DNA of 64,000 nt from Tautonia marina (GTDB lineage Bacteria; Planctomycetota; Planctomycetia; Isosphaerales; Isosphaeraceae). The notes under the pieces are model-generated. The model saw only the letters and a list, made by a program, of their open reading frames with translations, did no database searches and was not told the origin of the DNA. Shown piece after piece: positions 6,141-10,369 of this stretch (positions within the stretch are counted from its first letter, which is position 1; the number at the start of each line of letters is the position of its first letter). Location: assembly GCF_009177065.1 (NCBI RefSeq), contig NZ_WEZF01000012.1, positions 1 through 64,000 on the forward strand, written 5' to 3'. The position numbers and the translations under genes were made by a program.

Positions 6141-7025
6141 TCACACCCCCGCCGATTGCTCTGCCGAGGCAACCGTGTTGGCCAGCAGCATCGCGATGGT
6201 CATGGGGCCGACTCCTCCCGGAACCGGCGAGATCCACGAGGCCACCTCGGCGGCCTCGTCGAACACGACATCGCCGCAAAGGCTGCCGTCCTCCTTCCGG
6301 TGAATCCCCACGTCTACCACCACCGCCCCCGGCTTGATCCAGTCTCCCCGGACAAACTCGGGCCGCCCGACCGCCGCGATCAGCACGTCCGCCTCTCGAA
6401 CGATCTCCGAAATCTCCTGGCTGGCCGAGTGGCAGACCGTGACCGTCGCGTCGCCGAACGCACCCTTCTGGAGCAACAGCAGTGCCATCGGCTTGCCGAC
6501 AATGTTCGACCTTCCTAGCACCACCGCTCGTTTACCCTTCGTCTCGATTCCGTGCCGGCGCAGCAGTTCAACAACCCCCAGCGGCGTACACGACGCGAAC
6601 CTCGGCCGACCGATCGCCAGCAGGCCGACGTTTTCCGGGTGAAACCCGTCCACGTCCTTGCTCGGGCTCACCCGGTCGATCACCCGGTTCGGGTCAATCT
6701 GATTGGGCAAGGGCAACTGCACGAGAATCCCATCCACCGCCGGGTCGTCGTTCAGCCGATCGACGACCGCCAGCAGTTTCTCTTCACTCGTTGCGGACGG
6801 GAGGCGATGGACGGTCCCCTCCATTCCCACCTCTCGCGCCGCCTTCTCCTTGTTTCTGACATAGATCGCACTGGCCGGATCATCCCCGACCAGCACCGCC
6901 GTCAGGCCGGGCACCTTCCCCCGCTGTTCCCGAAGCACCGCCACCCGATCTCGAAGTTCGAGGCGAATCGCTCGGGCCGTCTCTTTCCCATCGAGGATCT
7001 GCGCCGGCACCACTCTCGCTCCCAT
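6141..7025 (-). CDS. folD: Bifunctional methylenetetrahydrofolate dehydrogenase/cyclohydrolase
   Basis: FolD interconverts 5,10-methylene-, methenyl- and 10-formyl-tetrahydrofolate in one-carbon metabolism. The 294 residues include the substrate-site YVRNKEKA with catalytic Lys59, the QLPLP motif, the KDVDGF loop, the NADP-binding GRSNIVGKP and the C-terminal PVPGGVGPMT signature. Length and motif order are standard. The ATG at 7023-7025 gives the expected N-terminus with ILDGKETA near residue 10. The gene stands alone, with the repeat-bearing gene-poor tract upstream of it. Confidence 0.95.
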   Translation of the reverse strand: MGARVVPAQILDGKETARAIRLELRDRVAVLREQRGKVPGLTAVLVGDDPASAIYVRNKEKAAREVGMEGTVHRLPSATSEEKLLAVVDRLNDDPAVDGILVQLPLPNQIDPNRVIDRVSPSKDVDGFHPENVGLLAIGRPRFASCTPLGVVELLRRHGIETKGKRAVVLGRSNIVGKPMALLLLQKGAFGDATVTVCHSASQEISEIVREADVLIAAVGRPEFVRGDWIKPGAVVVDVGIHRKEDGSLCGDVVFDEAAEVASWISPVPGGVGPMTIAMLLANTVASAEQSAGV

Positions 7026-7586
7026 CCCTTCACCCGACTCCGCCGATCGGCCCGGCTCGCCACGGTGAACTCACTCGATTGTCCTGTGGATTGTCCCCAA
7101 AAGGCCCCCGATGGGCCGAGTTCCCCTCGTCGAGCGTTCAATCGTCTGGAGGCCCCAAGAGTGACGGCTCGTCGCCGCAACTGCCAGGGTTCCTGGTCCG
7201 ACCGAGCCGACGACGCAACGCCTCTCAGCCTTGGCGAGGAATGCGCAGCGGAGTTCCTCGGAGCGCAATCCCCCTCCGCGATGCGATTGCGGAGCGATCA
7301 GGGGTCGATCTCTCGCGCTCCCCGTCCTCCCTCAGGTCAAGGGCCGAGTATATCCCCCCCTCCCCGTTCCGGCGACCCCTCGCCGAATCTCCACCGATTG
7401 GATCAACTTTTCCTGACTATTGCTCCTCATTTCCACGATGATGTGAGAGATGCGCGATTCTCCCGAGCCGCACCTTGTCCCAACACGACCCGTTCGCCCC
7501 TCCGGTTTCTCAACCTTCATCCCAGTTCAGACGCACCACGATAATCGAAACCTCACTCTCGAACACCCAACGCTTCGGAACACCAC

Positions 7587-7615
7587 CCGTTTGACGGAAC
7601 GAACCGAGATGAATC
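7587..7615. repeat. 29-bp direct repeat, copy A
   Basis: This 29-base element (starting CCGTTTGACG, ending GAATC) recurs at 7824-7852 with four substitutions, 237 bp away. Each copy lies about 55-85 bp before a GCGCACC array. A weaker relative (CCGAAACAAACGAACTCGAC) lies at about 8109-8128. Confidence 0.7.
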
Positions 7616-7669
7616 ACGCGAAGCGCTGTCTCTTGAACCACTTGGAACATCGCTCCCAGCGAGAATCGA

Positions 7670-7699
7670 GCGCACCTCGCGCGCACCGGTTGGCGCACC
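7670..7699. repeat. GCGCACC heptamer array 1
   Basis: Three exact GCGCACC words start at 7670, 7681 and 7693, that is 11 and 12 bp apart, about one DNA turn. On the other strand they read GGTGCGC. This is the first of three such arrays upstream of mnmG. Confidence 0.7.
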
Positions 7700-7823
7700 C
7701 TTGGCTCGATTCGGTGCCGCCCCCACATCCTCGTGCGACGGACTACCGCATACGGACGCTCCAGGCACTTCGCCCCGCCCTCGAGCGCGTGGGCCCGATC
7801 CCCAGCCCCCGACAACACTCCTG

Positions 7824-7852
7824 CCGTTTGACGAAACGAACCGACACGAATC
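7824..7852. repeat. 29-bp direct repeat, copy B
   Basis: Second copy of the element at 7587-7615, matching 25 of 29 bases. It precedes array 2 by about 55 bp, so the larger unit is repeat plus array, repeated at roughly 240-280 bp. Confidence 0.7.
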
Positions 7853-7906
7853 TCCACAACCTCCTTGACGACAACAGGTTGAAAGACGACGCCCAAGAAC
7901 AATCAA

Positions 7907-7958
7907 GCGCACCGGAGGCGCACCGGAGGCGCACCGACAGGCGCACAGTGAGCGCACC
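7907..7958. repeat. GCGCACC heptamer array 2
   Basis: GCGCACC starts at 7907, 7918, 7929 and 7952, with a one-base variant (GCGCACA) at 7941. The spacings are 11, 11, 12 and 11 bp. A further isolated copy lies at 7986-7992. The first three units are joined by an identical GGAG/GGAGG linker, giving a short perfect tandem repeat. Confidence 0.8.
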
Positions 7959-8186
7959 GCGGCTGATCCAAGGAAAGTCACTCCTGCGCACCAAGCCCCT
8001 CATCTTCCCCAAACAGGTTCCTCAAACGCCCCCGTCCTCAACCCTTCCGGCCTCTCAGCACCCTGGAATTCTTGCCAACAATCGATTACGCAACCCCAAG
8101 AACGTCCCCCGAAACAAACGAACTCGACTGCTCACAAATTCTTGAGAATTCATGACGTTACGCCGAATCCTGAGACGCTCACCCTG

Positions 8187-8228
8187 GCGCACCTCAAGGC
8201 GCCCCGAGGGCGCACCGGGAGGCGCACC
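8187..8228. repeat. GCGCACC heptamer array 3
   Basis: GCGCACC at 8187, 8210 and 8222, with a variant GCGCCCC at 8199; spacings are 12, 11 and 12 bp. It lies about 200 bp before the mnmG start codon. Confidence 0.75.
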
Positions 8229-8431
8229 TTGCAGCGAATCCTGGCCGAACAGTCGTCTGTTGGCACAGGAATCACCTCGCTGTCTCAATTCACGAAAACC
8301 GTTCCGCGATCCCTTGGTAAGATAAGACGGGTAGCCAGTTCCCTCGAACACTGCGGAAACCGTCTCCCCGTGTCCTGACTCAACCGTTCGGACGATTCCT
8401 CGATCCACTCCCTTGAGTCCCTGCCACTGCG

Positions 8432-10369
8432 ATGTCTGACCTCGAACGTCTCGATCCCTACCGTTACGACGTCGTCGTCATTGGGGCCGGTCATGCCGGA
8501 CTCGAAGCCGCCCTCGCCTCGGCTCGAATGGGCAGGCGAACGGTCCTCTTGACGATCAACGCCGACGGCGTCGGCCAAATGAGTTGCAATCCGGCCATCG
8601 GCGGCGTCGCCAAGGGACAGATTGCGCGCGAGGTCGATGCCCTCGGTGGGGCGATGGGGCTGCTCACCGACGCCGCGGGACTCCAGTTCCGCCTCCTCAA
8701 TCGCGGCAAGGGGCCTGCCATGCATAGCCCCCGCGCTCAGTGCGACAAAAAAGCCTATCAGATCGCCGCCAAGCTCATGGTCGAACGCCAGGCGGGCCTG
8801 ACCCTCCGGCAAGAGATGGTCGAGGGGGTCGTGGTCGAATCGGGCCGAGCCGCTGGGGTCCGGGTCCGAGGCGGAGCGATCTACCATGGTCGCGCGGTCG
8901 TCGTCACGACCGGGACTTTTCTCAAGGCGCTCATGCACACCGGCGAGCAGCAGACCGCCGGCGGCCGGGCCGGCGACGTTTCCGCCGAAGGACTCTCGGG
9001 GAACCTCCGAGAACTCGGCTTCGAACTGCAGCGGTTCAAGACCGGCACCCCTCCCCGCCTGAACGGTCGAACGATCGACTTCGCCGCGCTCGAACCCCAG
9101 CCGGGCGATCCCGAACCGATTCCCTTTTCCTTTCTCACCGATCGCATCGAGTCCCCGCAGCTCGACTGCCACCTGACCTACACCAATCCGGCCGTTCACG
9201 ACCTCATCCGGGAGAACTTGCACCGGGCTCCCATGTATTCCGGTCAGATCCAGAGTACCGGGCCGCGCTACTGCCCCTCAATCGAAGACAAGGTCGTTCG
9301 CTTCGCCGACCGCGAGCAGCACCAGATCTTTCTCGAACCCGAGGGGCGGCAAACCCTCGAATACTACTGTAACGGCATCTCGACGAGCCTCCCGAGAGAC
9401 GTTCAGGAGGCCATCATCCCGCAGATTCCCGGCCTGGAACGGGCCGAGATTATGCGGTTCGGCTACGCCGTCGAATACGACTTCGCCCCGCCGACCCAGC
9501 TTCATCCCACCCTCGAAACCAAGCGCGTTCCCGGTCTTTACTTCGCCGGGCAGATCAACGGCACGACCGGTTACGAGGAAGCCGCCGCTCAGGGGATCGT
9601 CGCCGGTATCAATGCCGCCCTGGCCTGTACCGGAGACGAACCCCTGATCCTCGACCGGACCCAGGCGTACATCGGCGTCCTCATCGACGACCTCGTGACC
9701 AAGGGGGTCGATGAGCCCTACCGCATGTTTACCAGCCGCGCCGAGTATCGCCTCCTCCTCCGACACGACAACGCCGATCTCCGCCTGACCGACCTCGCCC
9801 GTCGGCTCGGGCTCGTCGACGATGATCGCTGGTCGCGCTTTGTCCGCCGTCGGGATCGGATCGAAGCCCTTCGAGATCAACTCCGCTCGGTTCGAGTCGA
9901 TGGGGTCTCACTGGAGCAGATGCTGCGGCGCACCGACGTCTCCTGGGACGATCTGAAAACCCTTCACCCGAGCCTCTCCGCGTTCGACGCCGACGGCACC
10001 GGAGCCGTGGAACAGGCGACCATCGAGGCGAAGTACGGGGGCTACATTGCTCGACAGGCCCAGGAAATCGAGAAGGTTCGCCGCCTGGAAGACAAGGCGA
10101 TTCCCAGTGATTTCGATTACGACCGCATCCCCCAACTTCGGCACGAAGCGAGGGAAAAACTCCGACGGGTCCGCCCCCGGTCCATCGGACAAGCGTCTCG
10201 CATCAGCGGCCTGAACCCGGCCGACCTCTCGACACTTGTCGTCTTCCTGAAGCGCCGAGCCCCGTCGGACCTCGGCACCCGCCCTCACCGCCCGACCACC
10301 CCGGCCCCCGTCGACGGATCGTCCACCGCCGAGTCCCCGACCACTGATGAGCGCGTGCCCCTCCCATAG
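8432..10369 (+). CDS. mnmG: tRNA uridine-5-carboxymethylaminomethyl modification enzyme MnmG (GidA)
   Basis: With MnmE, MnmG installs the cmnm5 group on the wobble uridine of several tRNAs, using FAD, folate and glycine. The 645-residue protein has the FAD-binding [13 protein letters not shown] near residue 15, [12 protein letters not shown], the [11 protein letters not shown] block, [21 protein letters not shown] and the C-terminal YGGYIARQ region. All are canonical. A proline-rich tail of about 40 residues after the conserved end is an extra. The ATG at 8432 is consistent with the family start and no strong Shine-Dalgarno is seen. mnmE is not in the window; in many bacteria mnmG lies near oriC, which makes the repeats upstream worth attention. 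Confidence 0.95.

What the first reader, a model, noticed from the sequence alone, without database searches (positions are those of the whole stretch)
7587..8228. Three helically phased GCGCACC iteron arrays upstream of mnmG
Heptamers GCGCACC recur every 11-12 bp in three clusters (3, 5 and 4 units, counting one-base variants). A 29-bp repeat lies upstream of the first two clusters and a weaker relative precedes the third, with 240-280 bp periodicity, in a 1.4-kb non-coding tract. Helical phasing indicates a protein lining one face of DNA: origin iterons, a partition site, a nucleoid-protein nucleation site or a strongly cooperative repressor. mnmG is a frequent oriC neighbour in bacteria. 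A set of tandem small RNAs is an alternative.
Basis: partly seen in the sequence, partly recalled or inferred. Interest (0 to 1): 0.65.

Follow-up and report, generated by a model that had tools for sequence, protein, structure and literature searches.

The report
Dispersed, helically phased, promoter-driven noncoding arrays
The short repeats in front of mnmG are one of about fifty copies, per genome, of an undescribed noncoding DNA element in one genus of planctomycete bacteria, each with its own promoter and a row of protein-binding-like sites spaced one DNA turn apart, which points to an unknown chromosome-wide system rather than to anything special about mnmG.

Summary
In detail: three GCGCACC clusters (3, 5 and 4 units), each preceded by a longer motif, upstream of mnmG. 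It is not specific to mnmG. The genome holds 167 GCGCACC pairs spaced 10-12 bp (control 3) at more than 40 mostly intergenic loci. All four genomes of the genus have such arrays; essentially none of the other ~390 genomes of the class does. Intergenic copies share an architecture: a promoter-like head (TGTGACT-N18-GATNNT, spacing 18 in 37 of 38 loci), an rRNA-type boxA in about 45%, then 1-4 modules of site A (CGAAACGAACC) followed by a GCGCACC array (site B), all on one strand. Sites stay on an ~11.3-bp lattice across modules and unrelated linkers, in three species; the lattice is not phased to the promoter. Between orthologues the sites are conserved while spacers are not. No RNA structure is conserved. 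The same promoter and a module also occur in genes of an unannotated multicopy protein family. Best reading: dispersed, transcribed elements whose sites bind a cooperative protein along one face of underwound DNA. Binder and purpose are unknown. Origin, partition-site and mnmG-repressor readings are not supported; a noncoding RNA role remains a serious rival.

The parts
7413..7442 (+). promoter-like head of the element: CTGACT, 18 bp, GATGAT
   Evidence: Family-wide TGTGACT-N18-GATNNT head; spacing 18 in 37 of 38 intergenic loci; only such site in the window; core 143/144 identical between orthologues
7588..7605 (+). site A of module 1 (CGTTTGACGGAACGAACC)
7670..7699 (+). site B cluster 1: GCGCACC x3, spacing 11 and 12
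7825..7842 (+). site A of module 2 (CGTTTGACGAAACGAACC)
7907..7958 (+). site B cluster 2: GCGCACC x4 plus one variant at 7941; outlier unit at 7986-7992
8108..8124 (+). site A of module 3, weaker (CCCGAAACAAACGAAC)
8187..8228 (+). site B cluster 3: GCGCACC x3 plus one variant at 8199
8318..8323 (+). likely -10 (TAAGAT) of mnmG's own promoter, behind the element
   Evidence: Sequence; a TATGAT lies at the equivalent place in relative G041; inference
8432..10369 (+). mnmG, downstream neighbour, not part of the element
   Evidence: orthologues 93% and 84% identical
6141..7025 (-). folD, upstream neighbour, not part of the element
   Evidence: position and reading frame

Best explanation
Shown: this is one copy of a family of dispersed, largely intergenic elements that are conserved in position within the genus. 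An element has a promoter-like head, in about 45% of copies an rRNA-type boxA, and then modules of co-oriented short sites (A core ACGAACC, B GCGCACC; together RCGMACC) on an ~11.3-bp lattice. Inferred: the sites act as double-stranded DNA. A cooperative, polar, oligomerising DNA-binding protein lines one face of negatively supercoiled (underwound) DNA along each array, giving a nucleoprotein segment of up to several hundred bp. The head drives a C-rich untranslated transcript through the array, and boxA where present lets polymerase cross it without Rho termination. The most likely role is a chromosome-wide set of nucleation or anchoring sites whose state is coupled to transcription, not control of the neighbouring gene. 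A candidate binder is the unannotated 'GPRT...NAxxHGL' protein family, which shares promoter and module; no test links the two physically.
For: Own genome 167 pairs vs 3 control. All 4 genomes of the genus, 0 of 41 others in the family, 1 isolated hit among the remaining ~390 of the class. B-B distances 120-400 bp apart best fit 11.35 bp (power 118, n=477; 12.6 at 10.5 bp). Linker lengths from last B to next A follow an ~11.2-bp ladder (0 of 2000 jittered sets as strong) with no decayed B units in the linkers. Replicated in G041 and G040. Lattice not phased to the promoter. Orthologues: B identity 84%, its 3-5 bp spacers 57%, other element DNA 61%, promoter core 99%. No conserved RNA fold. Head spacing constant at 18. 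boxA on the element strand in 27 of 60, on the other strand in 2 of 60, same as in the genome's rrn leader. An ~11-bp period is commonly read as the pitch of negatively supercoiled DNA (PMC4132750).
Against: A pure DNA-site model does not need a conserved promoter, a boxA, or sites always in the sense orientation behind the promoter. No binding protein is identified. boxA is absent from the window's own copy and from more than half of the others. Linkers within a locus are partly related, so phase counts are not fully independent. The 11-12 bp length changes between orthologues may partly be gain or loss of repeat units.
Confidence: 0.5

Rival explanations
1. The elements are genes for long noncoding RNAs. 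The unstructured C-rich transcript displays repeated A and B motifs to an RNA-binding protein or a complementary RNA, as a sponge or scaffold; boxA protects it from Rho.
For: Promoter-like head with fixed 18-bp spacing and 143/144 conserved core positions; boxA equal to the rrn boxA; every site on the sense strand; C/G ratio 1.56; protein-coding versions carry the module in the mRNA.
Against: A non-integer ~11.3 lattice across unrelated linkers is hard to explain for single-stranded RNA; no conserved fold; Rfam finds nothing credible; no terminator-like site on the + strand behind the array in the window; no expression data.
Confidence: 0.33
2. The intergenic elements are non-autonomous mobile repeats served by the multicopy 'NAxxHGL' protein, whose genes carry the same promoter and module, as REP elements are served by RAYT transposases.
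For: Family genes share promoter and module; near-identical gene segments exist, one pair ending at the array, and several contigs end inside such genes.
Against: 18 of 20 sampled G041 elements, plus the mnmG one, are syntenic with own-genome elements, so they look old and stable; copies share motifs, not sequence; no terminal repeats or target duplications were seen; no transposase domain; intergenic copies hold no gene remnants; the protein family occurs without GCGCACC arrays in other genera.
Confidence: 0.1
3. A cooperative repressor or activator array for mnmG itself.
For: Lies 204 bp upstream of mnmG in the same orientation; an element is also present before mnmG in G041 and G040.
Against: More than 40 further copies next to unrelated genes, about 40% facing a convergent gene; mnmG has a promoter-like site of its own behind the array.
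Confidence: 0.04
4. Replication-origin iterons or a partition site.
For: Direct repeats with helical spacing; mnmG is an origin neighbour in many bacteria (general knowledge); the window's cumulative GC skew has a minimum near 14 kb.
Against: More than 40 dispersed copies per chromosome; no DnaA-box excess, none near the array.
Confidence: 0.02

Closest known systems
Iteron arrays of plasmid origins and ParR/parC-type centromeres (from memory)
   Same: Short co-oriented direct repeats about one helical turn apart, suited to cooperative binding
   Different: More than 40 chromosomal loci per genome, own promoter, some boxA, two related site types, lattice held through unrelated linkers
REP/BIME elements with RAYT transposases (PMC2817692)
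   Same: Many intergenic copies, species- or genus-specific, and a multicopy protein gene carrying the element
   Different: No palindromes; strict single orientation; promoter head; stable syntenic positions; the protein has no transposase domain
boxA-protected long noncoding transcripts: rRNA and some CRISPR arrays (PMC5725501, PMC7862264)
   Same: Promoter, then boxA (same sequence as the rrn boxA), then a long untranslated transcript with repeats
   Different: Units of 7 bp, not CRISPR repeats; no conserved RNA fold; helical lattice; dozens of loci
~11-bp periodic signals of bacterial genomes (PMC4132750)
   Same: Period that is commonly read as the pitch of negatively supercoiled DNA
   Different: Carried by specific heptamers at discrete conserved loci, not by weak AT-tract bias

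Membership tests
Origin of replication (oriC or iteron origin) | One or few copies per replicon | tested here: not met
   More than 40 array loci in the own genome
Origin of replication (oriC or iteron origin) | DnaA-box cluster next to the iterons | tested here: not met
   TTATCCACA with up to 1 mismatch: 4 in the window, 4.3 expected, none within 7 kb of the array
Partition site (parS/parC) | Cognate parA/parB or parM/parR genes adjacent, few sites | tested here: inconclusive
   Too many dispersed loci; adjacent gene products were not all identified
REP/BIME | Palindromic units in alternating orientation | tested here: not met
   All clustered units on one strand within a locus; the repeat finder reports only one incidental inverted pair
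Non-autonomous transposable element | Insertion polymorphism, terminal repeats | tested here: inconclusive
   18 of 20 sampled G041 loci are syntenic; terminal repeats not systematically sought; no within-species comparison
CRISPR array | Repeats of 20-50 bp with unique spacers of similar length | tested here: not met
   7-bp units with 3-5 bp spacers
Structured noncoding RNA | Conserved, covarying secondary structure | tested here: not met
   RNAalifold consensus of 38 modules is empty, no covarying helix; Rfam no credible match
boxA-protected transcript | Promoter followed by boxA in the same orientation | tested here: inconclusive
   Met in 27 of 60 elements across three species, 2 of 60 on the other strand; not met in the window's own copy (best 7/11)
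boxA-protected transcript | Transcription and NusB/NusE binding | not testable with these tools
   Needs RNA-seq and ChIP
Helically phased protein-binding array | Sites in one rotational phase over long distance | tested here: met
   control: not phased to the promoter
Helically phased protein-binding array | A protein that binds the sites | not testable with these tools
   Needs pull-down or footprinting

The most novel reading that the evidence does not exclude
A new kind of bacterial chromosome element. Some fifty dispersed transcription units per genome, driven by a dedicated promoter and partly protected by rRNA-type antitermination, exist to lay down helically phased nucleoprotein arrays, and are co-regulated with a multicopy protein family that carries the same sites in its own genes. 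Related boxA-linked A motifs in other Isosphaeraceae genera suggest a family-wide system with lineage-specific recognition sites.
Probability: 0.25. Interest if true: 0.88.

Novelty: categorically new. Interest (0 to 1): 0.72.

Why it matters
No element class known to me combines a dedicated promoter, rRNA-type antitermination and a helical lattice of binding sites in dozens of chromosomal copies. If confirmed it would give a tractable in vivo marker of DNA helical phase (about 11.3 bp per turn) under natural supercoiling, and an entry into chromosome organisation in planctomycetes, whose nucleoids are unusual. It also links an abundant, unannotated protein family (up to 36 copies per genome) to a concrete DNA or RNA target that can be tested.

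Tried and rejected
Rfam: one weak hit to a human lncRNA model, below its cut-off and implausible. Sigma-70 and terminator scans of the region: no promoter; the one terminator-like site is on the minus strand inside the array, shuffle level. RNA consensus fold and covariation of modules: none. Decayed B units as the source of the linker ladder: none seen. Intergenic elements as gene remnants: no significant tblastn match. Pfam, NCBIfam, PHROGs and PDB for the multicopy protein: nothing significant; viral and plasmid collections: nothing. Phase between promoter and lattice: not significant. Paper searches found no description of such elements, but the library is incomplete.

Full report
Observation. 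Within the 64-kb window the heptamer is only mildly enriched overall (18 against 11.8 expected), but 11 of the 18 lie in this one stretch.

It is a dispersed family. A DNA search of the own genome (G000, 7.07 Mb, 80 contigs; window = contig C12) found similar arrays elsewhere. GCGCACC-N3-5-GCGCACC occurs 167 times against 3 for the reversed control, the triple pattern 78 times against 0. Forty-two further array loci, 43 with the window's own, held 84 clusters of at least two exact units; spacings are 12 (95), 11 (39), 10 (20) and 22-24 (27). All four genomes of the genus have the triple pattern and none of 41 others in the family; in a wider sample of 397 genomes of the class there is one isolated further match. 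MnmG relatives place the genome in the family Isosphaeraceae.

Anatomy. Each module has an A site (ATTCCCGAAACGAACC), a weakly conserved body (GnCGnAACtcCTT ... TTnCGtC) and then B units. The first B lies at 66, 77, 89, 100 or 112 bp from A, that is, on steps of the same lattice. The core of A (ACGAACC) and B (GCGCACC) can be written as one motif, RCGMACC; that they are one recognition family is inference. Upstream, intergenic loci share a head, TGTGACT-N18-GATNNT: a scan that allowed spacings of 15-22 chose 18 in 37 of 38 loci. The heptamer GTGACTG is on the element strand in 25 of 38 upstream regions and on the other strand in none. The genome-wide pattern count is 56, 77, 49 and 4 in the genus and 0-5 elsewhere in the family. 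In the window the head is at 7413-7442. A boxA (CTCTTTGACAA) follows in many copies: 27 of 60 elements at 9 of 11 or better, 2 of 60 on the opposite strand, about 1.3 in shuffles. The rRNA leader of this genome carries the same CTCTTTGACAATCCG. The window's own copy has no good boxA.

Lattice. Pairwise B-B distances of 120-400 bp, mostly between modules, have their best period at 11.35 bp (power 118 for 477 pairs, 12.6 at 10.5 bp); A-A distances of 130-500 bp at 11.4. Linker lengths from the last B to the next A also follow the ladder, and no jittered set of 2000 matched it. The linkers do not contain decayed B units, so the ladder is not simply a fossil of a longer repeat. The same analysis gave 11.3 and 11.35 in G041 and 11.0 and 11.2-11.25 in G040. 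Distances from the promoter to the lattice are not phased, a useful internal control. Caveats: linkers within one locus can be related, and pairs are not independent. For the window's three clusters alone the data cannot fix the period; at 11.2 bp they agree within about 2 bp, at 11.35 bp the third cluster is several bp off.

Conservation. The folD-mnmG interval carries an element in G041 and a weaker one in G040, although the sequence between motifs has diverged almost completely. Eighteen of 20 other G041 elements have a syntenic counterpart in G000. In 18 orthologous pairs the promoter core is 99% identical, B units 84%, A 79%, the spacers between B units 57%, and the rest of the element 61%. 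Distance changes between matched sites are mostly 1 bp, or near 11-12 or 22 bp, or whole modules; for the 11 small changes above 4 bp the fit to 11.35 is better than uniform (P 0.0004), though gain or loss of repeat units explains part of this.

Context. Elements lie mostly in intergenic gaps; the upstream gene is usually 300-800 bp away. The downstream neighbour is co-oriented in 25 and opposed in 16 of 41 classified cases (includes a few loci whose other neighbour is lost at a contig end), so the elements are not leaders of particular genes. At least eight array loci in the own genome sit in or beside the 3' part of genes of one paralogous protein family, where A encodes SRNEPP-like and B RTEGRTE-like residues; three more members carry A and a single B 111 bp apart. 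Several of these genes have the same promoter. The family has 23 matches in G000 and 36 in G011, a genus without GCGCACC arrays, and has no significant match in Pfam, NCBIfam, PHROGs or PDB. In G011 a boxA follows the stop codon of several members. Noncoding boxA loci in G011 and G006 are in part followed by A-like motifs (CGAACCCATT, CGAAGCCATTTCG). Part of the system may therefore be family-wide, with B as a genus-specific addition; this is a lead, tested on few loci.

Mechanism. The lattice, the lack of RNA structure, the free spacers and the shared lattice in coding and noncoding contexts favour double-stranded DNA as the target, and the period is close to the value usually read as the pitch of negatively supercoiled DNA (PMC4132750). 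The promoter, boxA and constant sense orientation suggest that transcription matters, so an RNA role remains a serious rival. The binder, and whether the purpose is chromosome organisation, is inference. Known roles of boxA outside rRNA are in PMC5725501 and PMC7862264.

Verdict. The element family appears undescribed in the papers searched, which do not cover most subscription journals.

Noticed in passing
L172, L180, L188, L195, L232-L234; G011 L253-L265: Unannotated multicopy protein family (STGPRTxEGKxxSRxNAxxHGL...), up to 36 copies per genome in several Isosphaeraceae, no significant match in Pfam, NCBIfam, PHROGs or PDB.
   Followed up: partly
G006, G011, G024, G026: rRNA-type boxA motifs are multiplied to 37-46 copies per genome in several Isosphaeraceae genera; in G006 many lie within 200 bp of a contig start, which suggests a repeated sequence just upstream.
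   Followed up: partly
L391:1608 onward (G011): A perfect 25-bp tandem repeat (ACTTCGCCGGCGCCAGAACGAAGCC, about 15 copies) directly after a boxA.
   Followed up: no
L198:1678-1804; L195:5402-5514 and 6336-6452; L180:152-277: A separate 110-127 bp repeat family near the protein genes.
   Followed up: no
L167, L177, L183, L192 linkers: Repeats like ATCCGTGTTCCATCCGTGGCTCC inside the element linkers.
   Followed up: no
window 1-30000: Cumulative GC skew has a minimum near 14 kb without a DnaA-box cluster; may reflect gene orientation.
   Followed up: partly
G000 contigs C7, C15, C21, C27, C29, C33, C40 ends: Several arrays lie within about 1 kb of contig ends, suggesting that some copies are near-identical repeats that break the assembly.
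   Followed up: partly
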